Shown here piece by piece: positions 4,348 through 45,809 of a stretch of 64,000 nucleotides of DNA. Numbering within the stretch: the stretch's first letter is position 1; the number at the start of each line of letters is the position of its first letter. This stretch comes from a virus: positions 60,689 to 124,688 of the IMG/VR virus record IMGVR_UViG_3300032117_000009; one strand, written 5' to 3'. A program made the translations under genes and the position numbers. The notes below the pieces were generated by a model. The model made no database searches, was not told the DNA's origin, and saw only the letters and a list, made by a program, of their open reading frames with translations.

Positions 4348-6252
4348 TTACCAATTCTTTTTCTTTGGCGTAAATCTTTCTATGTGAGTTATGCGCTCAG
4401 GTGGGATAGGAGCTTTGGAAACAATTTCTTCTTTACCTATATCGGTAAAACCAGGTCTATCACTATGAAAATTATCTAAATCTACATGGTATAAATCAAA
4501 TTCTTGCGGAGCTGGCCTTCCACTTCTTTCATAAGTATGTTGAATATGATGTGCCCATATTTCTTTGTCTTCATCAGTTGGAGACATATATACATTTGCG
4601 CCAGGATCGATGTACCAATTGTGGTGTTCAATACCGAAAGTTTTCAAACCTTCTTGTTCAATTGATTCACGATTATGAGCAGGAGATACATGGTACGGAA
4701 GAGCTTCTTTGATAGAAGCTTCGACCTGAGGCCCAGTAATATTTGCTTGATCAATTATATATTGAGCGCCTTCAGGATCTTGTGCACCAGGAGCATGTAG
4801 ATTGCTATCTACTGGAGCATCATACCCTTGACCATTTACAGATGCCCAGAATTGCTTAATATGAGTAATCCTATCAGGTGTGATATGACCTTTGTAAACT
4901 ATTTCGTCAACACCCATGTCAGTTTTACGTTTTTCTACCGGAAGACCTTCTGTATTAACATGCCAAAGATCAAAACTATCTGCATCTTGTCGTTCTAAAT
5001 CTATATCTTCTAGATCTGGATACCCAATTGGATCATCAGAATTCCATCTATCCATTTCATGTCGTGATTTAATTTCTTGGCTATGTCTTTCATTACCTAT
5101 TTGATAACCCCAAAGATCTGCATCTTTATCAGTAGGAGACATATAAACTAATGGTTCTATACTAGATGGCCATTTATTTGATTCTTCAGTTCCTGGCAAT
5201 AAACCATTTTCTTCAATAGATTCTCTATGCTCAACTGGGGAAACATGATACGGAATAGCAGTTCTTAAAGAAGCAGTTCTTACATTTGATGGGTGAGTAA
5301 GGCCAATTTGAGTTGGAGTCATGTTTCCTGGGACATAACCAAATTGATCAGGTTCTACTCCAGGAAATTGTTTTGCCCAGCCTCTGCCTTTATAACCATG
5401 ATTATTAGATTCACCATATCTATAAACAGTTACTGGAACATGTGTAAGGCCAAGTTCTTTTGCAGCTATAATTCTATGGTTTCCTTCACCAAGATATGCA
5501 TATCTGTCATTCATATTATAGCTAACTTTTAATGGGTTGATAAAACCATTTTTCAGAAGTGAGCTTTTAATATTGTCTACTGTTGAACGACTATTACCAG
5601 TATCATAAATTGGGTCAAGACGATCAAATTCTCTAATTCTATGAACGTCTTCTAAAGGTACCCATTCAACCTTAACGTGGTTAGCATCACTTTTTTTATT
5701 TGCTTTTGTTAAAGCAATGATATTACTAGTTATATCATTAATAGAAGCATTTTTATTTAAATCTACGTGAAGATTACGAACAGTCTTTGCTTCGGATCTT
5801 GTAGATGCACTTTCTATAAAATAATTATTTAAAATTTTATCCTTGATATCATTTATTGATAAATCTTCTTTGTCAAGAGTAATAACAAAATTATTGCTAT
5901 CTTGCGGAGAAACAATAACAGGATTAAGATTATACCCCTGGAATTGAAGCATCAGGGATTGAATAATTGCTTGTTTGTTTTCTTCAATAATATAAGGAGA
6001 AAACTTACAATTATATTCTATTTTACCATTATCTTCTGTTTTTATAGTTTTAGGTCCATATCGAACATCATCAGTTCCAAGGCCTTTAATATCCCAAAAA
6101 TTGCCAGCATTCTTTTCCATCCACAAATCATGATGTTTTTGTGAACAAAAAACAAGCTCATCTAAACCATTTGAGGCTGTTAACCAATTCCAAGACGTTG
6201 AATTAGGATTTTTGCAATCAATATAATCACAATATATATTGTTAAGTGTCAT
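4348..6252 (-). CDS. ParB-like plus two ADP-ribosyltransferase-like modules
   Basis: A 634-residue multidomain protein. Residues 8-45 form a small zinc knuckle (YCDYIDC ... FCSQKHH). Residues 196-285 match the ParB/Srx fold, with the nucleotide-binding motif GEGNHRIIAA. Residues 334-470 and 519-628 are two copies of a module beginning [IL]PYHVSPxxxRESIExxGL, followed by VYMSPTD and closing with ERITHI. This resembles ADP-ribosyltransferase (Arr or RNA 2'-phosphotransferase-type) folds. Each module follows a short A-S-[LI]-[RK]-x-A segment, and the protein ends KKKNW. A virion-associated or injected host-modifying effector is an inference. Confidence 0.75.
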   Translation of the reverse strand: MTLNNIYCDYIDCKNPNSTSWNWLTASNGLDELVFCSQKHHDLWMEKNAGNFWDIKGLGTDDVRYGPKTIKTEDNGKIEYNCKFSPYIIEENKQAIIQSLMLQFQGYNLNPVIVSPQDSNNFVITLDKEDLSINDIKDKILNNYFIESASTRSEAKTVRNLHVDLNKNASINDITSNIIALTKANKKSDANHVKVEWVPLEDVHRIREFDRLDPIYDTGNSRSTVDNIKSSLLKNGFINPLKVSYNMNDRYAYLGEGNHRIIAAKELGLTHVPVTVYRYGESNNHGYKGRGWAKQFPGVEPDQFGYVPGNMTPTQIGLTHPSNVRTASLRTAIPYHVSPVEHRESIEENGLLPGTEESNKWPSSIEPLVYMSPTDKDADLWGYQIGNERHSQEIKSRHEMDRWNSDDPIGYPDLEDIDLERQDADSFDLWHVNTEGLPVEKRKTDMGVDEIVYKGHITPDRITHIKQFWASVNGQGYDAPVDSNLHAPGAQDPEGAQYIIDQANITGPQVEASIKEALPYHVSPAHNRESIEQEGLKTFGIEHHNWYIDPGANVYMSPTDEDKEIWAHHIQHTYERSGRPAPQEFDLYHVDLDNFHSDRPGFTDIGKEEIVSKAPIPPERITHIERFTPKKKNW

Positions 6253-13217: not shown

Positions 13218-13940
13218 TTAGAACCAATTGTACTTATCGCCAATGGCCTTATCAAATTCGTATGATTCTGCATATTCTTTGCGAGCGGTACGAAGAGTTG
13301 ATTGCTTTGAAGCTTCAATTACGTTAGCAACTTTTTCTCTGCGACAAATTTCAACATTGTCAAGGAAATTATCGATAACAGCAGCTCTGAAAGAAACATC
13401 AAGAAGCGAAGAAGTCTTGTGTTCTACAAATGAGCAAGCAGCTTCTCTAGTAGCAAGTTGTGATTTTGTAAGCTCAGGAGACTGCTCAAATGTCCATGTC
13501 TCAGCGCCAGCAGTTACAAAATTAGACCAGTCATACTCTCTGATCTCATTCTGTACTTCTTTAGCAGCGGAAAAAAGAAACGAACCATCGTCCTCACCAA
13601 GGTCAAACATACCATCTTGCACTTTGTAATAAGTAGAAGCTACAGTCCCACCTGGAAGATTTTGTAAATACTCTTCGGTGTCAAAGTCTACATATTCAGT
13701 AGCTGTCTTTTGTAGAAGCTCACGGTCAGACTCAAGGGTAGTAATTTGGTCAGCAATACGTACAAGCTCACCCTCTGTCGTCTGTGGATGTGAAGCAATT
13801 ACTCTTAGCCCACTAAGCATCTCCTGCACTTGCTCAATTCTATCGTAAATTGAAGCAGAAGAGCCATCAAACCATGATGTGTTGCTTGCGAGTTTCTTGC
13901 TAGCTGAAATTAAGAATGATGCATCTGGCTTTTCATTCAT
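13218..13940 (-). CDS. helical hypothetical protein
   Basis: A 240-residue, mostly helical protein with coiled-coil potential around residues 30-90 and 170-230. Near the N-terminus it has ISASKKLASNTSWFDGSSAS, another Lys-Ala-Ser plus Trp segment, and it ends DKYNWF. It has almost no Cys, unlike its neighbours. Base composition is slightly less AT-rich. It may be a scaffold-like or structural protein. No homologue recognised. Confidence 0.75.
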   Translation of the reverse strand: MNEKPDASFLISASKKLASNTSWFDGSSASIYDRIEQVQEMLSGLRVIASHPQTTEGELVRIADQITTLESDRELLQKTATEYVDFDTEEYLQNLPGGTVASTYYKVQDGMFDLGEDDGSFLFSAAKEVQNEIREYDWSNFVTAGAETWTFEQSPELTKSQLATREAACSFVEHKTSSLLDVSFRAAVIDNFLDNVEICRREKVANVIEASKQSTLRTARKEYAESYEFDKAIGDKYNWF

Positions 13941-13974: not shown

Positions 13975-15399
13975 TTACGAATTCCAGTCCTTATCGAAAG
14001 GATCAAACTCATGTGAATTCTCTCCACTTATACCTGTTTCGGAAGGCTTATTACCTTGTCCATGAGAAAAACTTTCATCGCCATAGTGGATATCATCTTT
14101 ACCATGAAAACCTTCAGGTATAGCTCCAATGCCACCCATAGCAACTAGTGCAGCAACATTAGAATCGCTTAAATTATTTCTACGTTTGTTTTTACCACCA
14201 TAGTCTTCATCATAATCTTCTTCAACATCATCAGTGTCTCTACCTGCTACACCATGCTCTGGGTCAGTTTCATAACCAGGGTTATCATCATCTCCAACTG
14301 ATGCATAAAATGGGTACCAAATCTTTTGTTTATTTGATTCTATAAACTTTTTCTCCCAATCATCATCATCAAAAGCAAATGGATCTTCACCAACAATATC
14401 TTTCATATCTAGTTTTTTATCATGTTTATCTAATGCATCGAAGTCAAGATGTACCTCTTCTGATTTACAGTGAGGACATTTTGCAGGAATGCCAAATTTT
14501 TCATATCCACCAGTTGTAAGACACCCATGGCAGATCAATGGTGGCCCTTGCGGTCTGCTTGCAGCATTTTCTAAAAATGATCCTTGTTTTTGTTGCATTT
14601 GGGCTTCACCTTTATCTACGCATGTTGGGCAATAATATGGAGGAAAACCAGTTCCATCGTTCCACCAACTAGCAAATCTTGGGCTTGATGGCTCTTCTCT
14701 TCTTCTACAATTAGAACAGCGTATATAATCTTTGTCAGAAGGTTTATTTGATATAACAGGAGATCCAATCATACCTTGTGTATTATCCTCATCTGACATA
14801 ATATTTTGATCCATTTTTAATTTATCACCTGATTGTTCAAGAATTTTATTTTCTTGAACAGACCTGCGTTTCATAGACTTTTTAAACTTATTTTCCCAAT
14901 CTTCATCGTCAAAACCTTCATGAACTGGAAAATTGCTTACTTCGTTATCCTGCGAACCTGGGTTATGACCACTAAAAAAATCCATAATCATTGAAAGATA
15001 ATCAGGGTCTTTTTTACCTTTTTCTAGAACATGTTCAACATATGATTGTGCTTCTGGATTTGTTGTATCACTAAAAATGTTACCATGGTATATCTCATGT
15101 TCACCATCTATCCTGCCAAGCAAATTTGCTGGGTCGCCAGGTCTAGGATCTTCTAAACGTTTGCCAACTTCTTTTTTTAAAGCTGCTTGGGCTTCTTCAT
15201 AGCTACCATTATGTTGGTAATATGTTCTTCTTCCTTCTACAATATTATTTTTGCGATTCATGGGTCCCCTTAAATTTTCTTTGCCCATTTTCATAGTCCT
15301 TCTATCTTGTTCAGGATTGCTTTGTTGTTCATCTTCATGCGGATTTATAGCATCAGGCAGATAATAAAAATTGTCTTCATATCCCTCATAATTATCCAT
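13975..15399 (-). CDS. zinc-ribbon protein with two W-x-K-S segments
   Basis: A 474-residue protein. Two paired zinc motifs are visible in the middle (RCSNC ... YCPTC, and CHGC ... KCPHC). They lie between two segments of the form DDEDWENKFKKSMKRRS and DDDDWEKKFIESNKQK, the second followed by WYPFYASVGDDD. The C-terminus is FDKDWNS. The repeated DW-x-x-KF spacing suggests a linker or recognition element flanking folded zinc modules. The rest is charged and low complexity. Function unknown. Confidence 0.78.
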   Translation of the reverse strand: MDNYEGYEDNFYYLPDAINPHEDEQQSNPEQDRRTMKMGKENLRGPMNRKNNIVEGRRTYYQHNGSYEEAQAALKKEVGKRLEDPRPGDPANLLGRIDGEHEIYHGNIFSDTTNPEAQSYVEHVLEKGKKDPDYLSMIMDFFSGHNPGSQDNEVSNFPVHEGFDDEDWENKFKKSMKRRSVQENKILEQSGDKLKMDQNIMSDEDNTQGMIGSPVISNKPSDKDYIRCSNCRRREEPSSPRFASWWNDGTGFPPYYCPTCVDKGEAQMQQKQGSFLENAASRPQGPPLICHGCLTTGGYEKFGIPAKCPHCKSEEVHLDFDALDKHDKKLDMKDIVGEDPFAFDDDDWEKKFIESNKQKIWYPFYASVGDDDNPGYETDPEHGVAGRDTDDVEEDYDEDYGGKNKRRNNLSDSNVAALVAMGGIGAIPEGFHGKDDIHYGDESFSHGQGNKPSETGISGENSHEFDPFDKDWNS

Positions 15400-16045: not shown

Positions 16046-18001
16046 TTATGATTCTAATTCATATTTTGAAGCTATAAATTTTAGGTATTGGGTAACTTGT
16101 TTTTTATTAGCAGTAATTGGTGGAAGGCCTAAGCTTGCTGCGCCTCTTCGATAATCATTTTTTCTTGACCCTGGCAAATCATCCCAAGCAGCTATTACAT
16201 TTGCAAAAGCTTCTGGATCATCTTGGTCTTCATGGTTTGTTGTAAGAATATCATGCGTTTTTCTTAAAATATTTTCACTAGGCTTATTAACCCGCCTACC
16301 AGCATTTATATTATCAACATCTTTTTTAAACTTTCCACCAACTATACAATAATCACATGGTGTATTATCATATTTTGTGTTTTTTCTATCCAAATGGTAA
16401 ATCAAACCAGATGCTCTACCATGTTGATAACCCCTAATATATTTTTTCCTTTGAGAACCTGGCTCATTTTCTAATTCAGATTGATTTTCTGGAGCTGTTG
16501 TTTCTTCATGTTCTTGGTCAGAATTAGGTACAATATTGAAATTATTATAAAAATTATAATTTTGCGGTGAGTTTACATCAACAACTTTTTGTGGCATTAC
16601 TGTTACCTGATGATATGGTAAAGATTTGATTAAACCATTTTCATCTTGTTCTACATTTTCAACGTATGGGTTTCTGTTTACAGGAACTTGTGGAGTATTC
16701 CCTGGTGTAGTTATTACCCTAGTATTTTGATATCCATTATTAGATCTTTGTTGATTGTTTTTTGGCTCTGTTTCTTTGGAACCCCAAACATCACTGTAAT
16801 TTGGCAATTTTGCATCAGGAGTTGATAAAGAGCCATGTAGTTTTTCTATTCTTGATAAGCTTCTTTCTAAATTATTTTTCCATGTTGGATTATCAAAGAA
16901 ACTTATTCCTGCTTCGTTTGTTTGATTAACATCTACAACTTTATCTTTTTGCTTTGTTCCACTTGGGGCACCTTTATAAATAAATCTATGCACGCCTTGA
17001 ACATTATTATAACTCCAACCTCTTTTAACAGCATCTTTTACAGAGTTATAAAAACTTTGTTTAAAATCAGCTGCAATAACAACTTTTGGAATATTGCTAT
17101 GGTTAGCATAAAACATACTGTTGATCCAATTATTTTTATAAGCACGCACAACTATCTTTCCACAATGGTCACATGTGAAATCACCAGTGTCTCTGCTTAG
17201 GTGTGTTGGGCCACCACAGATTGGGCATACAATTACTGAGCTTTGTTTCATTGATTTTTTCCAATCGATTGTACTATATGGGTTGTGATAAGCTGGGCAC
17301 CGATAATCTGTGCATCTATTACTTGATGTTAATTCTCCAGTACAGCAGCTACATTTTTGAGAGTTTCTACATTTTTCATTTTGACAATTACCAAATTCAT
17401 CTACAACGTAATTTCCACAATTGTCACATCTATTTGTTTCAGTGCAACGTGGGCATAATGTGTACTGTTCACGCTCAGATAAACAATTTGGGCAATGTTC
17501 TTTTTGACAATCTGGGCAAAGATCTAAATTATCACCGTATGCGTATTCTTTCTTAAGCCAACCTTCTGGCTCTTCATCATAACCTGGTGAATAGCTCGCA
17601 TAGCAATCTACACCATCACAATAAGTTTCATATGTGCGGTAAGCTTTCTTTGGTCTGAAATGAGGGCTTTCTTCGCATTTTGGGTTGCTGCATTCATCAT
17701 ACTGGTCCATGTACTCACCACATTTGTCACATTTATAACAATTTCTGCAATCTTCATTGACACAGCAACCACTATCCAAAGGCTCAGCACATTCTCTACA
17801 ATAGTCCTCTTGGCAATGTGGGCAAAGGTGATAATTGTCATCCCAGATAGGAGATTTAGATCTTCCTGTTCCTGGGCCATTCATTGAGTTTGTATAACTT
17901 TCCGACCAACCTTGGTATCCTGCGTCATCGTCATAAGCAAATTCATCGCAACCAGGGCCATCGCAATGCAATGTATATATGTCACGAGATAAACGTTTCA
18001 T
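16046..18001 (-). CDS. 651-residue multi-zinc-finger protein
   Basis: The start is the ATG at 18001, which overlaps the upstream stop (TAATG). The N-terminal 240 residues carry at least eight CxxC or CxxH pairs, arranged as double treble-clef-like units. They end at NPYSTIDWKKSMKQSS, followed by another ribbon, CPICG ... CDHCG. The middle (about 290-480) is less structured, with WINSMFYANHS and WKNNLERSLS segments. The C-terminal 130 residues are basic and helical (RGYQHGRASGLIYH ... DYRRGAASLGLPP). It probably binds nucleic acid or partner proteins; the sequence fixes neither. Confidence 0.8.
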   Translation of the reverse strand: MKRLSRDIYTLHCDGPGCDEFAYDDDAGYQGWSESYTNSMNGPGTGRSKSPIWDDNYHLCPHCQEDYCRECAEPLDSGCCVNEDCRNCYKCDKCGEYMDQYDECSNPKCEESPHFRPKKAYRTYETYCDGVDCYASYSPGYDEEPEGWLKKEYAYGDNLDLCPDCQKEHCPNCLSEREQYTLCPRCTETNRCDNCGNYVVDEFGNCQNEKCRNSQKCSCCTGELTSSNRCTDYRCPAYHNPYSTIDWKKSMKQSSVIVCPICGGPTHLSRDTGDFTCDHCGKIVVRAYKNNWINSMFYANHSNIPKVVIAADFKQSFYNSVKDAVKRGWSYNNVQGVHRFIYKGAPSGTKQKDKVVDVNQTNEAGISFFDNPTWKNNLERSLSRIEKLHGSLSTPDAKLPNYSDVWGSKETEPKNNQQRSNNGYQNTRVITTPGNTPQVPVNRNPYVENVEQDENGLIKSLPYHQVTVMPQKVVDVNSPQNYNFYNNFNIVPNSDQEHEETTAPENQSELENEPGSQRKKYIRGYQHGRASGLIYHLDRKNTKYDNTPCDYCIVGGKFKKDVDNINAGRRVNKPSENILRKTHDILTTNHEDQDDPEAFANVIAAWDDLPGSRKNDYRRGAASLGLPPITANKKQVTQYLKFIASKYELES

Positions 18002-19611
18002 TATGACCACAAACCTTTGTGTGGGTTTATAAAATTACGGCACCGTCTATTATTGCATTTTCCATGAGTTAATAATTGTTCGCAAGAACCACAGTTCTCT
18101 CTAGGTATATTTACTAATGTACAGTACCCTCCATCGTTTTGGCAAACGCCTTTTTTATTTTTTTCGCCACATTCTGGACATGTATAATATGAATCACATG
18201 CCTCATTATTGCATCTTCCATAATCATCTTCTGATACTTTGCACTCTGGGCAAATTTGATTAAAATGCTCTTTGCAATAGTGTCTTTCGTTGCCTAGCCA
18301 ATCATATGCATATTTCATTGGTTCATAAACAACTGGATTATCTGGGTATTTTGTTTCTGTGCATCCTGGGTAATCGCAATGTTGAATTGTGAGAGGCTCA
18401 TCAGGATAATTTGGATCATCTTCATACGTGTAATGAGCTTTTTTATCAAAACCCCAATTGATATCATCATATGCATTTGGTTTGCATGATTTACATCTAC
18501 CGCTAGGTGCTAATAAACCACCACAACCAGGGTAAATTCTATTATACCCATATGAAGGTTCTATTGTTTCTGTGCAATGAAGCGGTTTGTGTTCTTTGCA
18601 ATAGTGATAGCGTTCTCTTTCCCAATCAGACCCACCGCCGTAATAATTATTATAATCATCGTAGTTAACATCAGCTTTTTTGTCGCAACCTTCATGGTCG
18701 CATTGAGGAACTACATAAGCTATACATTCTGGGTTATAACATTCATGGTGGTCATTATTTCTAGAATTGGTATCACATTGCCTGCAATATTTGCCTCTTT
18801 CGCAATAACCATCTGAATACTTTTTATCGCCTGATGCATCATAATTTTTTTCATCTAAGCAGTTGCCAAATTTATCAACTTCGCTTCCACAAAAACATTT
18901 ATTATGCATATAACAACTGGGATTATGGCAAACTTGAGAGTCATTGTCGATAAATTCTTGTTTTAGTTCATCATCACGATATGGCTCTTCACATTCATGG
19001 CACACAAAATGATCCCAGCAATTTTTACAATAATCGGTGGAAGATTCGTCATGTCTGTGATGTTCTCTACGATGCCAACCTTCAGGCATTCGATCATATT
19101 TTGGGTTCCAACCATCAGCTTCACAATTTGGTGAGCCATCACACGTTACCCAATAATTTTTTGTGGAAATTTTAAGATTTTCTATAGCTCTTGTAGATTC
19201 TCCCAAAGAATTATATTTAGAACATTCTTTATTTTCACAATAAGCTTTTCCACTATTACTTTGATAATATGGTTCGCCACATTCTCTACAATTGTCATGG
19301 TATTCACAATTCTTATTATCGCATCTTCCACTATCTTCTAAAACTCCATGAAAACATTCCATACAGTTTGTCTTTTGGCAATCTGGGCAGATGTGAAAAT
19401 CATAAGCATCATGATTGTTTCGATGCTCTGGGAAATCAGATGCATCTTTCCAATCAGACTTCCACATATCATCTTCTGAAACTTCTTCTTCATTGCACTC
19501 TGGTCCATGAACATCACAAGTATAGCCAATATATGTTGATGCGTACCTAGGCTTATCTAAGCTATCGACAATGAGATTAGGTTGTTCAAAATTTTGTATT
19601 TTTTTACGCAT
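18001..19611 (-). CDS. 536-residue multi-zinc-finger protein
   Basis: It starts at the ATG at 19611, overlapping the upstream stop (TGATG). It carries roughly twenty CxxC, CxxH or CxxxC pairs spread over the length, with repeated CPxC...CxxxxC..C and NxExC signatures. A NWGFDKKAH linker near residue 390 is the same element as in the next protein upstream. The C-terminus ends HKGLWS. It is a paralogue in style of the flanking proteins. No catalytic motif seen. Confidence 0.8.
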   Translation of the reverse strand: MRKKIQNFEQPNLIVDSLDKPRYASTYIGYTCDVHGPECNEEEVSEDDMWKSDWKDASDFPEHRNNHDAYDFHICPDCQKTNCMECFHGVLEDSGRCDNKNCEYHDNCRECGEPYYQSNSGKAYCENKECSKYNSLGESTRAIENLKISTKNYWVTCDGSPNCEADGWNPKYDRMPEGWHRREHHRHDESSTDYCKNCWDHFVCHECEEPYRDDELKQEFIDNDSQVCHNPSCYMHNKCFCGSEVDKFGNCLDEKNYDASGDKKYSDGYCERGKYCRQCDTNSRNNDHHECYNPECIAYVVPQCDHEGCDKKADVNYDDYNNYYGGGSDWERERYHYCKEHKPLHCTETIEPSYGYNRIYPGCGGLLAPSGRCKSCKPNAYDDINWGFDKKAHYTYEDDPNYPDEPLTIQHCDYPGCTETKYPDNPVVYEPMKYAYDWLGNERHYCKEHFNQICPECKVSEDDYGRCNNEACDSYYTCPECGEKNKKGVCQNDGGYCTLVNIPRENCGSCEQLLTHGKCNNRRCRNFINPHKGLWS

Positions 19612-22600
19612 CAAAATCCCCAGGCGTCATTATATTTTTTCTTATGCTCTTGGTCATCACCTTCGCAGTACTTACATTGATTGTAAAGAGTATCTAATTT
19701 AGGCGACCAACAATTATGACAAATTTCATCTTTCCAACACTCTGGGCAATAAATTAAACCGTAGCCAAATTTCCAGCCTTTTTTAGCTGCATTTTTTTCG
19801 TCACCGTCTACGCCACCAACATCTAAGCACTCATCGCACCTAAAACGATAATTATCATCATCCCACATAGCTTGTCTTACTGAAGAGTTTTTATCAAAAC
19901 CCCAAGCTTTATTGTAATCCTGCTTTTTTTCTTCTTTTGTTAAAGGTTCGCAATTTAAACAACGGCCTTTATCTTTATCCAATTTAGAACCACAACCATC
20001 TTCTGCATATCCATAGCAATCATTATATTCTTTATTGTTGAATTTAGCGTATAATCTTTGCTGATATTGGTCAGTGCAATAAAGATTTTTGTGCAATGGG
20101 CATACATGAGATAATGAGTCTGGGTCACCATTTTGATAATGAACTGTTTCCCAACCAATTGGATGATCCATGTCATAGTCAAGGCCATCTTCATGTTCAT
20201 TGCAGCCAGGGTGATCACAGTCAGCTCCGTATGTCATGGTAGCTTTCTTGTCAAATCCCCAAGCCTTATTGTAATTATGTGTAACAAAATCGCAATGTGG
20301 GCATATAGTAGATGAATTTTCTATCTTCCAACCGCATTTATTACATCTATTAATATCAGTGTGCTTTGGGCAGACAAATTGCTGGTTTTGTATTGTCCAA
20401 CCATTTTCAATAGCTTTTTGAACTGGCCTTTCTCTTAAACCAATTTGGAAACTATTATGGCAAATTTCATCATCACCAGTTTTGTGGTTTCCACACTGAA
20501 TCGATCTATTGGTTAGATCAGCATTAGATTTTTTTCCAAAACCCCATGCGCTATTATAAAATTTTTTGTCAGATCCTTCACATAATGTGCATTGGCCGAA
20601 TTTCCCGAGCTTTTGTCCACAACCGAACGTCATATTTAATGGGTCGTTAATGTTCTCATCTAAGTGTCTTCCTTTTTTGCAAGTTGGGCAAAAATGAAGT
20701 TCTTCAGAATCATCATAATCTAATCCTGGCGTTTTATCTTTAAAACCATTTAAACTAGCTCTACCCCATTTAGAATTAATATATTGGTCAAAATTAGGAT
20801 CATGCTCTCCACATCTATCACAAAAAATAACTCTTTCAAATGAAGCTTTTTTGTCAAAACCCCATGCATCGTTATATACTTCTGGCTGTTTGATTGAACA
20901 TTCATTGCAATAATGTGATCCATTACCTGGGTCATATCCCTCATATCTGGGGATCTCTGAATAGCAACTATCACAGAATATTTTTATAAATGCTTCTTTT
21001 GAGGCAGCAGAAGATAAGCCACGCTCATAGTCTTGCATGCTTGGCGCATCTGTTGCCATTCCATCTTTTCCAGGATCTGGGTTCGGAGTAGAGCCAAAGC
21101 CTAAACCATCTGTGTCGCCAGTATCTTGTGCCATTCCTGGCATGATAGCTTCATTGGGTTGGTCTAATGAGAAGTAATTGATAGCTTTCTTCAAACCCCA
21201 TGCGTTGTCATAATTTTTCTTTATGTTTTCGTCTAAACCATCACATACTAGGCATTGACCATATTTGCCTTTTAAATTTGTGCAATTAGGGCAACGTTCT
21301 TTTGCATGTTCTGGGCAATAATCAGAATCTTGTTTACCTAAAAACCAATTTTCAAGCGCATCTTCATCATCATGATAAACTATGTTCTTGCAGCCTTCTT
21401 CATCGCAGTGATGGAACGTAGAAGCTTTTTTATCAAATCCCCAGGCATCTTTGTAATCTTTTTGATATTCTTCGTTAGATCCATCACAAGTTTCACACTG
21501 ACCGTACTTTCCCTCTTTCCATGATTTACATCTAGGGCAGAATGTAGTATCTCCTGCACATGGAGGACATATGTAACAATCATGTTTATCATCCCAATGC
21601 ATATTAGGGCCTGGGTGAGTATCTTCACAGTGTCCACATGTATCTTCACCAAGAATATATTCAGAACAATTATCACAATAAAGTGAATCATGGTAACCAT
21701 GTACATCCCAAGGATAAATAGGCTGTAGGGTAGTTCCGTATTCATCTACTAGCTTATCGTGTTCAATGTCTTTTCCTGGAAAGCTTTTTTGTATACAGCT
21801 TGGACATTTCACTCCACCGTCACTAAGAAAACAAAGAAGATCTGGATTATGGCTAGAAGCTTTTTTATCAAAGCCCCAGGCATTAAAATAAGCTTTTGAG
21901 TCCTTGCCATCACAATCTAAGCATTGTCCAAATATGCCTGCATTTTTTTTATTAAGTTTTTTCCCACAGCCAGTTTTTAATAAATTTCTTCCTTCTTCAT
22001 CCCATTGGTCTATGCAATAAAGTTGAGCATGTTCTGGGCAAAAATCAGCTATATCTTTTTCTCCACCAGCTGTTTGCCCAGCTGTTTGCCAATTCTTATC
22101 TATTGCATCTTCAAGATCTACAATTTTATTGCATAATGGGTGATCGCAATCAATCTCTCCGGTTGAATGCATGCTAGAGTCTTTATTAAATCCCCAAGCG
22201 TCTTTGTAATCTTTTTTAACTTCTTTTTTAATTTGATCGTAACAATCTTTACAGTAAACACAATCCCCATATTTATTCATATTTTTTATATGGTGATCAT
22301 AGCAACATTTGTCACATACAAAAGAATTTTCTGAAGCTTTTTTATCAAAACCCCATGCATTTTTATAATTTTCTTCTGTATCTTCTTCTGTTGCCTCGCA
22401 ATCATCGCAAAGGCTATACTTATTTAAAAGCTCACCACATCCATGACCAATTTCATCTCTATCTACACAATGTAGTTTTTTGTGCTCTGGGCAGAAATCA
22501 TAATCTTGTTCTCCCGATAGCCAATCTCCTAATGTTTCATAGTCATCATGGTAAACAATATTATTGCACCCTTCTTCATCACAATGAAAAAATGTAGATG

Positions 22601-23312
22601 CTTTTTTATTAAATCCCCAGGCATCGGCATATTCTTTTACCAAGCCATCTTCCGTTTGATTTGAGCACCAAGTGCATTTACCATATGGTCCTAATAACGA
22701 ACCACAACCGTTTTTTGTTGTAGTAAGGTGATGATTTGCATCATCTACGCAATGCAGATCTTTATGTTCTGGGCAGAAATGTTCTGTTGCAAAATCGTTG
22801 TGCTTAAAGTTTGATCCTGAGACATTAGCTACGCCCCAATTACCCTGAGCACCATATCCTGATAGTATGCCTGATCGATCAACAACTATTTCATTCTGAC
22901 AATAACCATTGTCTCCATAATGATTACATCTTACTCTTGGAATAAACGAAGCTTTTTTATTAAATCCCCAGGAATCGGCATATTCTTTTTCTATTTCTTC
23001 TTCTGTTGCTTCGCAATTGTCGCATTTACCATAATTGTTTAATACCTCACCACATCCATGACCAACTTCATCATTGTCTACACAATGAAGTTTCTTGTGC
23101 TTTGGGCAGAAATGTTGATCAGAAGCTGTAGCGTTGCCCCATTTATTTTCTTCTAGGGCATAATATTGACGTATTCTTCCTCTATTATCAATGCTTTCAT
23201 TTTCATTGGGGCAATAAGTTATTCTGCCACCATCTTCATCCACATGATCACAGATAGCCTTGGTTACAAGCGATGCTTCTTTAGGAGCGATATCATCACA
23301 GGAATCATACAT
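19611..23312 (-). CDS. 1233-residue concatemer of zinc modules with AWGF-x-KKAS linkers
   Basis: About twelve zinc modules of 60-140 residues are each closed by Y-x2-AWGF-[DN]-KKAS or a close variant (for example SWGFNKKAS, AWGFDKNSS, AWGFGKKSN). The last copy is cut at AWGF immediately before the stop. Modules share CPEH-x2-LHC, HGCG, G-x-C-x2-C-[DE] patterns, so several are recent duplications. The start is the ATG at 23312, an eight-base overlap with the upstream stop; a longer in-frame start inside that gene is unlikely. If the linker is cleaved, this is a polyprotein; if not, a beads-on-a-string metal-binding scaffold. Confidence 0.85.
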   Translation of the reverse strand: MYDSCDDIAPKEASLVTKAICDHVDEDGGRITYCPNENESIDNRGRIRQYYALEENKWGNATASDQHFCPKHKKLHCVDNDEVGHGCGEVLNNYGKCDNCEATEEEIEKEYADSWGFNKKASFIPRVRCNHYGDNGYCQNEIVVDRSGILSGYGAQGNWGVANVSGSNFKHNDFATEHFCPEHKDLHCVDDANHHLTTTKNGCGSLLGPYGKCTWCSNQTEDGLVKEYADAWGFNKKASTFFHCDEEGCNNIVYHDDYETLGDWLSGEQDYDFCPEHKKLHCVDRDEIGHGCGELLNKYSLCDDCEATEEDTEENYKNAWGFDKKASENSFVCDKCCYDHHIKNMNKYGDCVYCKDCYDQIKKEVKKDYKDAWGFNKDSSMHSTGEIDCDHPLCNKIVDLEDAIDKNWQTAGQTAGGEKDIADFCPEHAQLYCIDQWDEEGRNLLKTGCGKKLNKKNAGIFGQCLDCDGKDSKAYFNAWGFDKKASSHNPDLLCFLSDGGVKCPSCIQKSFPGKDIEHDKLVDEYGTTLQPIYPWDVHGYHDSLYCDNCSEYILGEDTCGHCEDTHPGPNMHWDDKHDCYICPPCAGDTTFCPRCKSWKEGKYGQCETCDGSNEEYQKDYKDAWGFDKKASTFHHCDEEGCKNIVYHDDEDALENWFLGKQDSDYCPEHAKERCPNCTNLKGKYGQCLVCDGLDENIKKNYDNAWGLKKAINYFSLDQPNEAIMPGMAQDTGDTDGLGFGSTPNPDPGKDGMATDAPSMQDYERGLSSAASKEAFIKIFCDSCYSEIPRYEGYDPGNGSHYCNECSIKQPEVYNDAWGFDKKASFERVIFCDRCGEHDPNFDQYINSKWGRASLNGFKDKTPGLDYDDSEELHFCPTCKKGRHLDENINDPLNMTFGCGQKLGKFGQCTLCEGSDKKFYNSAWGFGKKSNADLTNRSIQCGNHKTGDDEICHNSFQIGLRERPVQKAIENGWTIQNQQFVCPKHTDINRCNKCGWKIENSSTICPHCDFVTHNYNKAWGFDKKATMTYGADCDHPGCNEHEDGLDYDMDHPIGWETVHYQNGDPDSLSHVCPLHKNLYCTDQYQQRLYAKFNNKEYNDCYGYAEDGCGSKLDKDKGRCLNCEPLTKEEKKQDYNKAWGFDKNSSVRQAMWDDDNYRFRCDECLDVGGVDGDEKNAAKKGWKFGYGLIYCPECWKDEICHNCWSPKLDTLYNQCKYCEGDDQEHKKKYNDAWGF

Positions 23313-29459: not shown

Positions 29460-30638
29460 TCAATAAAACTCTCTCGAAGAAGATTTCCAGTCAATTTCAC
29501 TGTATGGGTTGTACCCAGGAGCGCACTTGTACATATTGGCTTTTGTATTGAGCAAAGTCTTATTTACGTCTTCTACACTAAAATCATCTTTGGTAAGTGC
29601 AAGGTTTGTAATGTCATTAGCAAAATGGTATGCTTCATGATCGTTTAAATCGTATTTGCCTGAGTAATCTTCGTAATGATTAGCAATTCCACTAGCTACG
29701 TATCGTGCATCTTTATCATGAGCTTTTAAAACGTCATCATGAGTAACAACAGGCCCTCTAGCATATGCATAGTCACCTACATTAATTCCTTTATCATGGG
29801 CATCTAAAATTTCATTTTTATTAAGATTAGAATTTTTGGCATATGCATAATCACTTAAATCAATACCTTTATTATGAGCTTCTAAAAGTTCATTATGATT
29901 AATATCAGAGTCTCTAGCATGTACATAATCATATAAATTAACACCATTATAATGAGCTGCTAAAATTTCTGCGTTACTAGGCTTAGTATATATTGGGGTT
30001 TCTTCCAAAGGATTGTTCTCCGAGTTTGGTATTACTTTTTCAGAAGCTTCAAAATACCATGGTGTGTTTATTTTTACATTATCTATCAAAGAACTATAAT
30101 TACCTTCTACAAATTGATCATCAGATATTTGACGTAGGTGTGGGCAATGTATTCTTACTAAACGCATGCATTCTTTATGATATGGCAATGTATCGCTTCC
30201 AAACTCACCAGATCCAGCTGATCCATAATAGTCTTCTTTATCTGGTTGCCAAGCTACTGCTTTATCATTGTCTTCAAATCTATCACCGCACATAGGGCAA
30301 CATCTTTTATCTATGGATTGCATAACTGAATTATCTAGTTCGTCTTTGGCAAAATTTGGTATATCTTGTGCATCAACTCTTGTGCTATTCCATGGCATTG
30401 GAATTCTTTTAAATAATTTGCGGTCACCTATCTCATAACCCATTCCTTCATTTTTGGGTGTTAAGCGATCATATATTTGATTTTTTTCACGAGTCTTCAC
30501 GTAAGGCCTTGGCAAGCCTATTACTTCTGGACCTTTTGGACTAAATTCTTGTGCTTTAGCTGCAATATGCAACATGTGACTAGGACCACTACAAAATAAG
30601 CAATCTGAGTATGTAGCTGATTCATGGTACCATGCCAT
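29460..30638 (-). CDS. CxxC/HCPH zinc protein with AH-x2-G-DYAYAR repeats
   Basis: A 392-residue paralogue of the gene at 15402-16040, with the same PWN, CCPMCGDRFEDNDKAV and LPYHKECMRLVRIHCPHLR core. N-terminally it starts MAWYHESATYSDC. The middle contains four or more repeats of about 24 residues (NEILxAHxKGIxxxDYAYAR), a helical repeat seen in other actinophage proteins. The C-terminus ends NPYSEIDWKSSSREFY. Role unknown. Confidence 0.78.
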   Translation of the reverse strand: MAWYHESATYSDCLFCSGPSHMLHIAAKAQEFSPKGPEVIGLPRPYVKTREKNQIYDRLTPKNEGMGYEIGDRKLFKRIPMPWNSTRVDAQDIPNFAKDELDNSVMQSIDKRCCPMCGDRFEDNDKAVAWQPDKEDYYGSAGSGEFGSDTLPYHKECMRLVRIHCPHLRQISDDQFVEGNYSSLIDNVKINTPWYFEASEKVIPNSENNPLEETPIYTKPSNAEILAAHYNGVNLYDYVHARDSDINHNELLEAHNKGIDLSDYAYAKNSNLNKNEILDAHDKGINVGDYAYARGPVVTHDDVLKAHDKDARYVASGIANHYEDYSGKYDLNDHEAYHFANDITNLALTKDDFSVEDVNKTLLNTKANMYKCAPGYNPYSEIDWKSSSREFY

Positions 30639-31684: not shown

Positions 31685-32419
31685 CTAGCCCTTAAGCTTT
31701 TGTATGTCAGCTTGAAGGTCGGATAGACGGAAATTGCGTAGCTTTCCAGCCTCTACAGCCTCAGGAGTGATTATTGCCCATGTCTCTTCGAGGTAGCACT
31801 GAAACCACTGCTTTGTTACAGCTTGGATCTCTCCCCAGGTTACAACATAAAAGTACTTTTCATCATAACCAACGATGATGACACAGTGGCCACCTTCAAT
31901 CTGCTGGTCAGCTGGAGTACCAGTAAGTGCCCATGGCTTGCCCTCTTGGAACTGCTGCATGCAAGGGGCAGGGACAAGAATACCGATGTAACAGAAGCCA
32001 AAGGCATTGACTACTGACTTGATCTCATCGAAGTCCTTGTGGTCAGTAGGAGCGTAAGCAGCGATCTTTGATCCAAATAGACCCTCTGATTCCCAATGGG
32101 CGAGAAGATCAGCTTCAATAGCACCTTGGTCGGCACCATTGGTATACTGGAGGTAAGCGTTAACTACGTCTTGGTCGTTAAGAAGCTTTTCTTTAACGCC
32201 ATCGAGCTGAGCTACCGCCATCTTAGCGTGGTAAGCTCCAGCGAATGTGCAGTCGCCATACTTATCATTACCAAGCATGTACCAATCTGGTACAGCAGGA
32301 GCACCAAGAGTGGCAGGGGCTTTTGGAAGAGGATTTTCCTGGTAATAAGCTAACATGTGTAGACCATCTGGCCTAACAGCTGGCTTACGACCTAAACGAC
32401 CTGCAATACGCTCTGACAT
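31685..32419 (-). CDS. papain-like cysteine peptidase
   Basis: A 244-residue protein with NDKYGDCTFAGAYH around C57 (nucleophile), GGHCVIIVGYD around H178 and VVTWGE around residue 194. This is the C, H, N/D-type layout of papain-like (C1-type) peptidases that recur in actinophages. It has a strong ribosome site (GAGAGGATAAAAA) and a short leader. Codon and base use are less AT-rich than its neighbours. It could be a virion peptidase or processing enzyme for the neighbouring repeat proteins, which is speculation. Confidence 0.75.
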   Translation of the reverse strand: MSERIAGRLGRKPAVRPDGLHMLAYYQENPLPKAPATLGAPAVPDWYMLGNDKYGDCTFAGAYHAKMAVAQLDGVKEKLLNDQDVVNAYLQYTNGADQGAIEADLLAHWESEGLFGSKIAAYAPTDHKDFDEIKSVVNAFGFCYIGILVPAPCMQQFQEGKPWALTGTPADQQIEGGHCVIIVGYDEKYFYVVTWGEIQAVTKQWFQCYLEETWAIITPEAVEAGKLRNFRLSDLQADIQKLKG

Positions 32420-35316: not shown

Positions 35317-35507
35317 CGCTCACCACCTTGGTCTGCGAGGGCGGCTTCCGCCTCGTCACGCCACCGTTGCAACGTCTCAGCGTCGGGTCGCCAGCCTTCT
35401 CGCATACGATTGAATTCTGCGGAGATTTCGTTCATGTGCCGAAACGTCTGGCGCATTTGCACCGCCTTCGGATCGTTCCAGTTGCGTGCCTTGAATCTGC
35501 GCCTCAT
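35313..35507 (-). CDS. GC-rich island protein 4
   Basis: A 64-residue protein: basic head (MRRRFKARNWNDPKAVQMRQ), then helical. It ends ADQGGER, a degenerate form of the LEGER ending of the other island genes. Its ATG overlaps the upstream stop (ATGA) inside one copy of the junction repeat. Composition is far more GC-rich than neighbours outside 35.3-36.8 kb. Not recognised. Confidence 0.7.
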   Translation of the reverse strand: MRRRFKARNWNDPKAVQMRQTFRHMNEISAEFNRMREGWRPDAETLQRWRDEAEAALADQGGER

Positions 35508-35525
35508 CGCTCCCCCTCTAGTGCT
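35502..35525 (-). repeat. start/stop junction repeat copy 1
   Basis: This is the first copy (one mismatch) of a 24-base element that in transcription order contains CTAGAGGGGGAGCGATGAG. It encodes the ALEGER ending of one gene, its TGA stop, a strong Shine-Dalgarno sequence (GAGGGGG) and the overlapping ATG of the next gene. Other copies are at 35741 and 36361. Confidence 0.8.
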
Positions 35526-35746
35526 GCTCGGACTGCTCTGGCGATACGGGTCATTTCGGGGTAATCAAGTTCCATGTAGTTCGCCAGCAAATTGGCATCC
35601 TCACGGCTGATAGTGATGGTCACGGTGTCGGGATCGCCGGGTCCGGCCTTCGATTCCAGCGTGCGGATCGCCTCGCTCAGCAGGTCCCGAGCGTCGATCA
35701 TTCGATGCCGTGCGTAGTTGACGGCGGTTCGGTTTCGCTTGCTCAT
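35504..35746 (-). CDS. GC-rich island protein 3 (TITIS domain)
   Basis: An 80-residue protein with a C-terminal TVTITISREDANLLANYM strand-helix unit, ending AALEGER. The same TITI[ST]R unit appears twice in the 140-residue island gene, so the proteins are paralogues with a duplicated small domain. GC-rich. The N-terminus is MSKRNRTAVNYARHRM. Not recognised. Confidence 0.72.
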   Translation of the reverse strand: MSKRNRTAVNYARHRMIDARDLLSEAIRTLESKAGPGDPDTVTITISREDANLLANYMELDYPEMTRIARAVRAALEGER

Positions 35747-35764
35747 CGCTCCCCCTCTAGTGCT
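35741..35764 (-). repeat. start/stop junction repeat copy 2
   Basis: An exact copy of the 24-base junction element at 36361-36384. It joins the 207-residue gene (C-terminus ALEGER) to the 80-residue gene with an ATGA overlap, and carries the ribosome site for the downstream gene. Confidence 0.85.
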
Positions 35765-36366
35765 CGCAATTCGTAGGTGACGCCATGAAGGATGACGAGT
35801 GGCAGGTCGGGCTTGGTCGTTTCAATCTCCACTGGCTCAAACTCAACATTGGCGTAAAGGGTGGTGGTGCCGTTGCCATTTGAAACCTCGGTGATCTGCC
35901 AGTCGTTGTTCTTGGTGGCAAATGCGAAGCCCTCTAGGAACCGAGCCTTGCCGAGGACTTGAGCGTTGCCGTAGACCCAAGCGTTGCCGAGGACTTGAGC
36001 GTTGTCGAAGACCCGAACGTTGCCGTAGACCCGAGCGTTGCCGTAGACCCGAGCGTTGCCGTAGACCCAAGCGTTGCCGAGGACTTGAGCGTTGTCGAAG
36101 ACCCAAGCGTTGCCGTAGACCCGAACGTTGCCGTAGACCCGAGCGTTGTCGAAGACCCAAGCGTTGCCGAGGACTTGAGCGTTGTCGGAGACCCGAGCGT
36201 TGCCGAAGACCCGAGCGTCAGGACCGACATAAACGGCGTCCTCGACTGTTGCTGTGTCGGCAACCCATCCACCGCCATTTGAGTGCTGGTGGGCTGGGAC
36301 CGGTCCGTTACCGTCCTTGAAATCGTGAGTTGTCATGTTCTTTCCTTTGTTTGTGTTCTGGCTCAT
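35743..36366 (-). CDS. hexapeptide-repeat beta-helix protein (GC-rich island)
   Basis: A 207-residue protein. About twenty tandem six-residue repeats of [GD]-N-A-[RQW]-V-[YFLS] form a left-handed or pectate-lyase-like beta-helix solenoid, as in bacterial acyltransferase or polymer-binding repeat proteins. The N-terminus has MSQNTNKGKNMTTHDF, where M11 (36336) follows AAAGGAAAGAAC and is an alternative start; the C-terminus ends ALEGER. The repeat DNA is nearly identical, so slippage is likely. A surface, receptor-binding or host-interaction role is a guess. Confidence 0.78.
   Translation of the reverse strand: MSQNTNKGKNMTTHDFKDGNGPVPAHQHSNGGGWVADTATVEDAVYVGPDARVFGNARVSDNAQVLGNAWVFDNARVYGNVRVYGNAWVFDNAQVLGNAWVYGNARVYGNARVYGNVRVFDNAQVLGNAWVYGNAQVLGKARFLEGFAFATKNNDWQITEVSNGNGTTTLYANVEFEPVEIETTKPDLPLVILHGVTYELRALEGER
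35950..36215 (-). repeat. tandem 18-base hexapeptide-coding repeats
   Basis: Nearly perfect short direct repeats such as GCCGTAGACCCGAGCGTT (plus strand) fill the middle of the 207-residue gene. Their length and near-identity make expansion or contraction by replication slippage likely. Confidence 0.8.
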
Positions 36367-36384
36367 CGCTCCCCCTCTAGTGCT
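36361..36384 (-). repeat. start/stop junction repeat copy 3
   Basis: The third copy of the 24-base stop/start element, joining the 140-residue gene (ending ALEGER) to the hexapeptide gene. Identical to the copy at 35741. Confidence 0.85.
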
Positions 36385-43793: not shown

Positions 43794-45809
43794 TTATCGC
43801 CTTGGATTTCCTTTGGCACGTCTAGCCATTGAGCCATAATCATATGGTCCACGATTCTTCATCGAAGACAATTTTTGTCTAGCGGTTGAAATATCAGACT
43901 CATAATAACCCATGGTCATTGGTGTGTGGTAACCACCCTGGGATGCAGCTAGTAGCTGTGTTGAGCCAAGCCTATCTCGTGTTTCCATTCTCCTGAAGTT
44001 ATCTTCTAGCAATTGGTCAACACAAACCATGAGACAGTCAGCAAGGTCCTTTGTTTGTACTGGTCCTACATCCTGCTTCTTGATCTTTCCATTTACTTCC
44101 TGAAGGAATCGAAGCTCGTTCTCCAGCAGACAAGAACCATCTTTGCCAAATTCATCTCTGTACGCATGTACCCAGCCCTGACCAATTGCTGATTTAAATC
44201 TTTCAGCACGCTTCATGTTTGCAGATGGCGTGAAAAGATCTTCCTTTACTATTGCCTTGTGTGGTGGCCTGGACTCTCTTAATCGCTTCTTCATCCTGGA
44301 GATTGTAACGAATGATCCATACTGGTCGTATGAGAATACTTTGAGAGTTGGGAACTTATTGATTGTTGATACAATCTCTTCCTCTACTTGTTCATAGTCA
44401 ATTTGATGGTCTGGGAAGTCTTCTGGGTTCCAGACTTTCATCCAGTCTGTGATGATGTGTGACCAAATCTCACCATCTTCTGGATCTGGAATTGGTTCTA
44501 CATGGCAAATCATTGCTGCAGTGTTAGCCTGAGACTTAGATGGGTCACAATGGCCTCTATAAACAAATGCCATTAAGCCATACTCTTGTTCAACTAATTG
44601 CCTAAGGTTACCTTGCCCATCAATAAATGGGTCATACATCTTTGCAATAACAGCTGGATTAAGGTAAGCATCAATAACATCAGCCCATTGGCTTAATCGC
44701 TCAACTTTAAAAACACTTGGTTCTCTTTGCTCAAGCTTCTTCATCTCTTCGTTGTACAGCTGTGGGGCACCACGGAACTGGAATCCTTGGGTAGCTTTTG
44801 GATCATCCCAATCCTCATACGGACCCCATGATGGCAATTGTGCTATTAACATGTTTGGGTAAACAGGATCACCTGTCTCTGCATCTTCCATTAAACCATT
44901 TTGGTACAGCTCATAGCATTTACCAATTTTGGTGAAAGGTGACGTTGGAATATAAATAAAACCGTCTTTACCGAACTGGTCAAGGGCAGGCGTGATAGCG
45001 TTGTAGACTTCATCAGACGTTCTAGGACCATCTGTTCCTACAAGCATGTGAGCAAACTCATCAAACATGACTGTAAAACATGCAGCACCACGAGATGCCT
45101 TAGAGTTCGATGTGATAGCCATGTTACGAACTGATGCAATCAATCGTTGTGGTCTAATGCCCCTAGCCTCGAATGCAGCAATTCTTCTTGTGTCTGCTGG
45201 TGTACGCAGAGCTACAAAATATTCTTTTGCTTCAGCTATGTAGGGCCTAAAACAATCTGCATCGATGATTGTGTTGGCAAGGTCAGCAAACTGATAAGCC
45301 TTAGCCTGCTGGATATTGGTAGCTGCACAGAAAAGGTAAACATCCTTTGATCTGTCAATACCATAATACCACTGAGGATCGTCTAGCTGAAGAAGCCTCC
45401 AGTTGTTGTATGCTCCCAGGATTCCACCAATATGGCCTTTACCACCACGGCGACCAGTAATATTAATTACTTCTTTGAAATGGTTATAGTCATTGGACTT
45501 GAGCCATTCTATTCTTTTCCAGATATCTGGAGAGATACCGATTGATACGCCTGTCTTGGAGAATCCTTTAGACCATTGATCAATAACTTCAAGGTCATAA
45601 TCTGTAAAATTTTCAACCTCTAAATTAATAAGTTTTAAAAGAGTTTTTTGGCGTGGGTACAGCTTTCTACCTAAGAATGCTGGGTGTTCAGCAAACTCAC
45701 AAATAGGCGGAATATCAGGTTCTTTTTTTAAAGCCTTGCTAGCAGAAGATAAGAAGTCTAATTCTTGAGACAGAATCTCCTGGTTAGCTTCTTTGCTTAC
45801 CCTTGCCAA
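43794..45809 (-). CDS. terL: terminase large subunit
   Basis: A 671-residue protein. The Walker A-like loop is GRRGGKGH (119-126), the Walker B is TVMFDEFAHM (D250, E251), and the C-terminal RNase H-like nuclease is supported by GHCDPSKSQANTAA, VFSYDQYGS and TKDLADCLM segments supplying acidic residues. This drives DNA packaging by ATP hydrolysis and cuts concatemers. The Walker A is atypical (GRRGG), as in many phage terminases. A candidate small subunit (47486) is nearby. Confidence 0.9.
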   Translation of the reverse strand: MARVSKEANQEILSQELDFLSSASKALKKEPDIPPICEFAEHPAFLGRKLYPRQKTLLKLINLEVENFTDYDLEVIDQWSKGFSKTGVSIGISPDIWKRIEWLKSNDYNHFKEVINITGRRGGKGHIGGILGAYNNWRLLQLDDPQWYYGIDRSKDVYLFCAATNIQQAKAYQFADLANTIIDADCFRPYIAEAKEYFVALRTPADTRRIAAFEARGIRPQRLIASVRNMAITSNSKASRGAACFTVMFDEFAHMLVGTDGPRTSDEVYNAITPALDQFGKDGFIYIPTSPFTKIGKCYELYQNGLMEDAETGDPVYPNMLIAQLPSWGPYEDWDDPKATQGFQFRGAPQLYNEEMKKLEQREPSVFKVERLSQWADVIDAYLNPAVIAKMYDPFIDGQGNLRQLVEQEYGLMAFVYRGHCDPSKSQANTAAMICHVEPIPDPEDGEIWSHIITDWMKVWNPEDFPDHQIDYEQVEEEIVSTINKFPTLKVFSYDQYGSFVTISRMKKRLRESRPPHKAIVKEDLFTPSANMKRAERFKSAIGQGWVHAYRDEFGKDGSCLLENELRFLQEVNGKIKKQDVGPVQTKDLADCLMVCVDQLLEDNFRRMETRDRLGSTQLLAASQGGYHTPMTMGYYESDISTARQKLSSMKNRGPYDYGSMARRAKGNPRR

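What the first reader, a model, noticed from the sequence alone, without database searches (positions are those of the whole stretch)
19611..23312. A 1233-residue chain of zinc modules separated by an AWGF-[DN]-KKAS linker
Seen directly: about twelve copies of Y-x2-[AS]WGF-[DNG]-K-[KDN]-[AS]-[SNT] punctuate Cys/His-rich modules of about 60-140 residues, and the protein stops exactly after the last AWGF. The linker is better conserved than much of the module sequence, so it is under selection itself. Inference: either a polyprotein whose linkers are cut by a phage protease to release many small zinc proteins, or a repeating docking motif for a partner. I know of no described phage protein with this design.
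Basis: partly seen in the sequence, partly recalled or inferred. Interest (0 to 1): 0.88.

Follow-up and report, generated by a model that had tools for sequence, protein, structure and literature searches.

The report
Tagged zinc-module chain of lake phage
A lake phage makes one long protein that strings twelve zinc-binding pieces together with a repeated 12-letter joint; similar joints or end-tags sit on many unrelated proteins beside the phage's head genes, which suggests, though nothing here has been tested at the bench, that the joint is a 'pack me into the head and cut me' label.

Summary
Twelve YxxAWGF copies (11 internal, mostly followed by [DN]KKAS, one at the stop codon; 0.03 expected) close twelve Cys/His modules. 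Synonymous codons vary while the residues hold. One orthologue was found (phage G024, portal 90% identical): same joint, fewer modules, one of them mostly without cysteine. The joint is therefore not part of a zinc fold. It is a local form of something wider. Proteins between terminase and major capsid gene in related lake phages carry short Trp tags between domains, at C-termini or, in most relatives, at N-termini (MNWxxRYA: 28 proteins against about 0.1 expected, on bodies including an amidase and a SET protein). The joint's second half, KxAS, is 4.3-fold enriched in those proteins, including scaffold and portal, but near background elsewhere. At two joints a relative has separate genes instead. 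Best reading: YxxAWGF is a domain-end targeting tag and KxAS a maturation cut site, so the chain is a concatemer of head-packaged zinc proteins. Packaging and cutting are inferred. No such phage protein turned up in the libraries searched.

The parts
19611..23312 (-). Zinc-module chain, 1233 aa, 12 units of (KxAS)-module-(YxxAWGF); 90 Cys, 51 His
   Evidence: no Pfam family; orthologue L079:4665-7964
23271..23312 (-). N-terminal MYDSCDDIAPKEAS, KxAS before module 1
   Evidence: sequence
22947..22982 (-). linker 1 YADSWGFNKKAS
22596..22631 (-). linker 2 YADAWGFNKKAS
22332..22367 (-). linker 3 YKNAWGFDKKAS
22173..22208 (-). linker 4 YKDAWGFNKDSS
21855..21890 (-). linker 5 YFNAWGFDKKAS
21420..21455 (-). 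linker 6 YKDAWGFDKKAS
21177..21212 (-). linker 7, degenerate, YDNAWGLKKAIN; followed by a region homologous to the N-terminus of a separate G001 protein (L033:9396-11471)
20841..20876 (-). linker 8 YNDAWGFDKKAS
20523..20558 (-). linker 9 YNSAWGFGKKSN
20238..20273 (-). linker 10 YNKAWGFDKKAT
19881..19916 (-). linker 11 YNKAWGFDKNSS
19611..19634 (-). C-terminal copy YNDAWGF followed by the stop codon; no KKAS
18001..19614 (-). next zinc-rich protein; internal tag INWGFDKKAHYTYEDD, where G024 has NPWDNVFTKKAHYTYEDD; C-terminus GLWS*
16046..18010 (-). zinc-rich protein; internal IDWKKSMKQSSVIVCPICGG; in G024 the part after the tag is a separate gene starting MKESSAVICPICGG and the gene before it ends AWGFGDSQ*
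13975..15399 (-). protein with internal tags DWENKFKKS and DWEKKFIES, C-terminus DKDWNS*
13218..13940 (-). conserved protein of the cluster; its relatives are rich in KxAS
31685..32419 (-). papain-like cysteine protease beside the tag cluster, conserved in the lake relatives; alternative cutter
43794..45809 (-). terminase large subunit, upstream border of the tag-rich region

Best explanation
The linker is a composite label in two halves. YxxAWGF, at the end of a predicted helix, is a domain-end tag that sends each module, or the whole chain, into the assembling prohead. The following [DN]KKAS is a recognition site of the phage's head-maturation protease. The chain is thus a concatemer of small zinc proteins made as one gene product, taken into the prohead, cut into twelve pieces during maturation, kept in the head as internal proteins and probably ejected with the DNA. 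Shown: the repeats, their selection, the same two elements across the neighbourhood and relatives, and linkers at gene borders in relatives. Inferred: packaging, cutting, the identity of the protease, ejection and what the zinc modules do.
For: 1) The KxAS half behaves as a head-module element: [KR]xAS is 122 observed against 28.3 expected in terminase-to-capsid proteins of seven lake phages, chains excluded, and 34 against 27.8 elsewhere; three scrambled controls give 0.7-1.1. It recurs in the scaffold-like protein of relatives (KKKAS-NGNQ, QKVAS-G, RFAS, RQAS) and in the portal tail. 2) At natural C-termini the W half remains and KxAS is missing: AWGF*, WGFNA*, WGFGDSQ*, NPWEDVFNKK*, NPWDSVFDK*, WDSDLNL*, WDKDLGL*. 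3) Linkers coincide with gene borders: G024 splits 16046-18010 at its tag, and the stretch after linker 7 is a protein N-terminus in G001. A separate tag in G004/G007 (SSWNKRYANSK) is a protein N-terminus in G002. 4) The joint does not depend on the zinc fold: it borders a mostly cysteine-free module in the orthologue, and sister tags border non-zinc repeats in G001 and G024. 5) In other relatives the W tag is N-terminal (W..R[YF][ASKN] in the first 30 aa: 28 proteins, about 0.13 expected) on unrelated bodies, including an amidase and a SET protein, as in known capsid-targeting peptides. 6) Location between terminase and the portal-protease-scaffold-capsid block. 7) Model: helix ends at AW, GFDKKAS is coil.
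Against: No virion or infected-cell data. KxAS outside the chains is not concentrated near N-termini (13 against 12.5) nor just before Cys pairs (10 against 9.7). One free-standing G024 protein keeps KESS right after its Met, where a cut would achieve little. The major capsid protein shows no constant KxAS near its N-terminus. The known proteases of T4 and giant phages cut after Glu, so this would be another specificity. KxAS counts across related phages are not independent. The N-terminal MNWxxRYA tag and the AWGF linker are alike but not proven homologous. The exact AWGF linker is known from two phages only.
Confidence: 0.48

Rival explanations
1. Docking only. The W tag is a short linear motif bound by one partner (scaffold, portal or a host factor); the chain stays intact and acts as a multivalent scaffold. 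KxAS is merely the flexible start of the next module.
For: The W half is kept at natural C-termini, where nothing can be released. Tag spelling is fairly uniform within a phage but differs between phages (WGFDKKAS, NPWxxVFNKK, WxxDLKLSS), as for a motif that co-evolves with one partner. A free protein keeps KESS at its N-terminus.
Against: KxAS is enriched in its own right in scaffold and portal proteins without a W tag, is missing at tagged C-termini, and joints fall on gene borders in relatives.
Confidence: 0.25
2. The chain is a true polyprotein, but the cutter is the neighbouring papain-like protease (31685-32419), acting in the cytoplasm or after ejection rather than in the prohead.
For: A gene conserved in the lake relatives beside the tag cluster, 50-86% identical. 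The model matches xylellain and papain (Foldseek probability 1.00, E 2.5e-8), with invariant Cys57 and His178.
Against: The Asn of the catalytic triad is replaced by V/I (VTWG for NSWG), so activity is unsure. KxAS enrichment tracks head proteins, including the scaffold, which points to the maturation protease.
Confidence: 0.12
3. No processing or docking. The linker is the conserved C-terminal helix and N-cap of a domain duplicated into an array; similar tags elsewhere are remnants of recombination between adjacent genes.
For: The linker always follows the same module end and is partly helical in a weak model; module number varies between orthologues, as in ordinary repeat expansion.
Against: The linker also borders a mostly cysteine-free module; tags sit on unrelated proteins; the linker is better conserved than the modules, with synonymous change.
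Confidence: 0.12

Closest known systems
T4 internal proteins with capsid-targeting sequence (IPIII; Alt) and P1 DarB packaging signal
   Same: A short peptide shared by several unrelated cargo proteins, sufficient in T4 and P1 to send foreign proteins into the capsid; in T4 removed by the prohead protease (PMC9024508, PMC5694885)
   Different: Here the tag in this clade sits between domains and at C-termini, is Trp-centred, and the motif is KxAS, not xxE; many cargo units are joined in one chain. Targeting is untested
Polyvalent proteins of phages and conjugative elements (Iyer et al. 2017, PMC5512222)
   Same: Long multidomain proteins near late genes, thought to be injected with the DNA and in part processed by peptidases
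   Different: Here the domains are repeats of related zinc modules rather than disparate enzymes; a uniform linker separates them; no metallopeptidase or ArdC-type domain was found
Prohead-protease substrates of giant phages (SPN3US gp53/gp54, phiKZ inner head proteins)
   Same: Many internal proteins cut at a short motif by the head protease, with several sites per propeptide (PMC5694885, PMC10052503)
   Different: Cutting is after Glu at A-x-E or S-x-E in N-terminal propeptides; no concatenated mature modules described
Animal-virus polyproteins
   Same: One precursor with repeated cut sites between mature units (general knowledge)
   Different: Late gene of a tailed phage; units are paralogous zinc modules; cutting not shown

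Membership tests
Capsid-targeting sequence (T4/P1 type) | Same short peptide on several unrelated proteins encoded near head genes | tested here: met
   N-terminal W..R[YF] tag on 28 proteins, about 0.13 expected; bodies of 23 families, tagged proteins include an amidase and a SET protein. For the AWGF form: two proteins in G000 and two in G024
Capsid-targeting sequence (T4/P1 type) | Peptide is sufficient to bring a foreign protein into the head | not testable with these tools
   needs a fusion experiment
Capsid-targeting sequence (T4/P1 type) | Located at the N-terminus | tested here: not met
   inter-domain and C-terminal in G000 and G024; N-terminal only in other relatives
Prohead-protease cut site | Motif shared with scaffold and other head proteins and enriched there | tested here: met
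   [KR]xAS 122/28.3 against 34/27.8 elsewhere; scaffold homologues
Prohead-protease cut site | Cut after Glu (T4, phiKZ, SPN3US) | tested here: not met
   the motif has no Glu; sequence, and for the known motif
Prohead-protease cut site | Observed cleavage | not testable with these tools
   no proteomics available
Polyvalent proteins | Domains of disparate activities in one polypeptide | tested here: not met
   twelve related Cys/His modules; no Pfam families
Polyvalent proteins | Gene near packaging and late genes | tested here: met
   between terminase and portal
Known zinc-finger or zinc-ribbon family | Significant profile or fold match | tested here: not met
   no Pfam hit at E<=0.1; no PDB fold match with E<=0.001 for a model of pLDDT 65
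Viral polyprotein | Natural protein ends match the two halves of the joint | tested here: met
   C-termini and gene splits
Viral polyprotein | Release of separate mature units | not testable with these tools
   needs proteomics or co-expression

The most novel reading that the evidence does not exclude
A family of lake phages, probably of actinobacteria, runs a general cargo code: a Trp tag plus a KxAS maturation site, placed at the start, the end or between domains, loads many unrelated proteins into the head. In this clade cargo units are strung into true polyproteins that the maturation protease cuts inside the prohead.
Probability: 0.35. Interest if true: 0.87.

Novelty: new variant of a known kind. 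Interest (0 to 1): 0.74.

Why it matters
It would give a readable sequence code for which proteins a large group of uncultured lake phages packs, and perhaps injects, turning dozens of unknown genes into a defined cargo list. It would also be a tailed phage that packs effectors as a cleavable polyprotein. The tags could be used to load chosen proteins into phage heads. Targeting and cutting are both directly testable with one protease, one scaffold and one fusion.

Tried and rejected
Zinc-domain identity: no Pfam hit for the chain, no PDB fold match for module 3 (weak model, pLDDT 65). Sequence relatives of the chain among 50,697 annotated phages: none. First IMG/VR scan with the single protein: none; G024 was found only through the linker DNA pattern. 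Bacterial and archaeal genomes: none. Enrichment of KxAS just before zinc knuckles or at N-termini outside the chains: none. KxAS and W tag in the mycobacteriophage LRRHood: no clear signal. The single-match contigs of the linker scan other than G024: no repeated linker; the two read in frame (L081, L083) look like chance matches. A single W-motif regular expression for all phages was too loose or too narrow. KxAS as a composition effect: rejected by scrambled controls. No paper on a comparable phage protein was found in the held library; most subscription papers are not in it.

Full report
What is there. The window is 60689-124688 of a 124,688-base virus record from IMG/VR. The gene is on the minus strand, ATG 23312 to stop 19611, 1233 aa, with 90 Cys and 51 His. 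It holds twelve [AS]WG[FL] copies where shuffles give 0.03. Eleven are internal, in the frame YxxAWGF-[DN]-KKAS, with copies 4, 7, 9, 10 and 11 departing from KKAS. The twelfth is the C-terminus itself. The N-terminus also carries KEAS, so the unit is KxAS-module-YxxAWGF repeated twelve times. The linkers are 66% identical pairwise, the modules 36% (28% without Cys/His matches); linker codons differ at synonymous positions in 40% of comparisons against 49% at random. So the residues are under selection and the linkers are not merely recent copies.

The phage. The DNA polymerase is about 33% identical to Rhodococcus and Gordonia phages. The terminase is 62-79% identical to that of some twenty other IMG/VR contigs, called lake phages here; that they come from lakes, and that they infect actinobacteria, is an assumption from their kin, not a test. 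The head protease is 50% identical to Bxz1-group mycobacteriophages. The host is unknown. Genes run on the minus strand from replication through terminase, a tag-rich region of about 30 kb, portal, protease, scaffold-like protein and major capsid protein.

Relatives of the chain. No annotated phage, bacterial or archaeal genome was found to encode a relative. One IMG/VR contig does: G024 (IMGVR_UViG_3300002307_000069, 51,581 bases, portal 90% identical), found by the linker DNA pattern. Its 1099-aa chain has the same linker (WGF[GDN]KKA), fewer modules, the C-terminus YSNGWGFNA*, and a roughly 300-residue module whose larger part lacks cysteine, between two linkers. The joint is therefore independent of the zinc fold.

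A wider tag. Other proteins of the region end in or contain Trp tags. G024: NPWDDVFNKNAS and DAWADVFNKKGS between repeats without zinc motifs, C-termini NPWEDVFNKK*, NPWDSVFDK* and AWGFGDSQ*. G001: WGTDLKLSS, WNADLKLSS, WETDLRLSS, C-termini WDSDLNL* and WDKDLGL*. At one orthologous site G000 has INWGFDKKAHYTYEDD and G024 has NPWDNVFTKKAHYTYEDD, so the two spellings replace each other. Trp lies in the last 10 residues of 17 of 34 proteins of the region (5.9 expected from composition) against 22 of 99 elsewhere (14.2 expected; Fisher p 0.004).

N-terminal form. G002, G004, G007, G009, G012 and G016 begin unrelated proteins with M[NS]W-x-x-R-Y-A; W..R[YF][ASKN] lies within the first 30 residues of 28 proteins where about 0.13 are expected, and of none in G000, G001 and G024. 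A DNA pattern for MNWNxRYA finds 31 stretches in IMG/VR with 23 unrelated bodies (the pattern selects the tag, not the bodies). Tagged proteins include an amidase (E 2e-71) and a SET-domain protein (E 4e-8).

The second half. [KR]xAS occurs 122 times against 28.3 expected in terminase-to-capsid proteins of seven phages, the chains excluded, and 34 against 27.8 in the rest; three scrambled patterns give 0.7-1.1. G000 alone gives 23 against 4.8. The scaffold-like protein repeats it in relatives, at KKKAS-NGNQ and QKVAS-G among others, and the portal tail has KTASTKTAS. The natural C-termini with a Trp tag listed above do not carry it.

Split and fused genes. The G000 protein 16046-18010 is two genes in G024, divided at the tag...SNAWGFGDSQ* and MKESSAVICPICGG..., where G000 reads through IDWKKSM-KQSSVIVCPICGG. 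The stretch after linker 7 (INYFSLDQPNEAIMPGM) begins a separate protein in G001. The internal SSWNKRYANSK of a G004/G007 protein is the N-terminus of a G002 protein. Tags thus mark borders of units that can live as separate proteins.

Structure. Module 3 with both linkers gave a weak model (pLDDT 65, pTM 0.43): a helix ending at AW, GFDKKAS in coil, no PDB match. It agrees with an exposed joint but proves little.

Candidate cutters. The maturation protease is L004:9515-10174 (PHROG head maturation protease). A second candidate, 31685-32419, is modelled as papain-like (best match xylellain, E 2.5e-8, probability 1.00) with invariant Cys57 and His178 but without the usual Asn; it is present beside the tags in the lake relatives.

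Reading. The simplest account of a tag kept at true ends, a second motif used only where something follows, the same second motif in scaffold and portal, and joints that are gene borders elsewhere, is a cargo polyprotein: target, package, cut. T4 and P1 supply the precedent for short capsid-targeting peptides on internal proteins; giant phages supply the precedent for multi-site maturation of ejected proteins; polyvalent proteins supply the precedent for long multidomain injected proteins. None of these has this architecture. Cutting, packaging and ejection are inferences, and the negative results (the MKESS start, no constant site in the capsid protein) keep the docking-only rival alive.

Noticed in passing
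L095, L094, L048, L049, L039, L041, L045, L050; loci L097-L127: N-terminal MNWxxRYA tag on many unrelated small proteins of lake phages, often several per contig.
   Followed up: partly
L004:10879-14400 (G000 portal), residues about 279-616: Probable intein in the portal gene (starts CVVGSTDIMTPSG, ends VTHN; the stretch matches PHROG helicase, primase and terminase profiles that may owe this to inteins); absent from the G002 portal.
   Followed up: no
window 31685-32419 (-): Papain-like protease without the usual catalytic Asn, conserved in the lake relatives.
   Followed up: partly
window 35504-36785 (-): Three adjacent genes end in ALEGER*; the codons GAGGGGGAGCGATGA likely encode the ribosome-binding site of the next gene.
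   Followed up: yes
L033:6993-9396; window 29460-30638; L091:2-1186: Arrays of about 26-residue repeats (HDKGVNLDDYRWARNYGATHNE), ending in Trp tags in G001 and G024.
   Followed up: no
L094:5267-8002 (G002 scaffold-like protein): Scaffold-like protein enlarged to 911 aa with an inserted Cys-rich module right after KRAS.
   Followed up: no
window 4348-6252 (-): ParB-like domain followed by two copies of a YHVSPxxxRESI domain, Trp at the C-terminus.
   Followed up: no
window 35743-36366 (-): Hexapeptide-like repeats (VYGNARVFDNAQVLGNA), probably a beta-helix.
   Followed up: no
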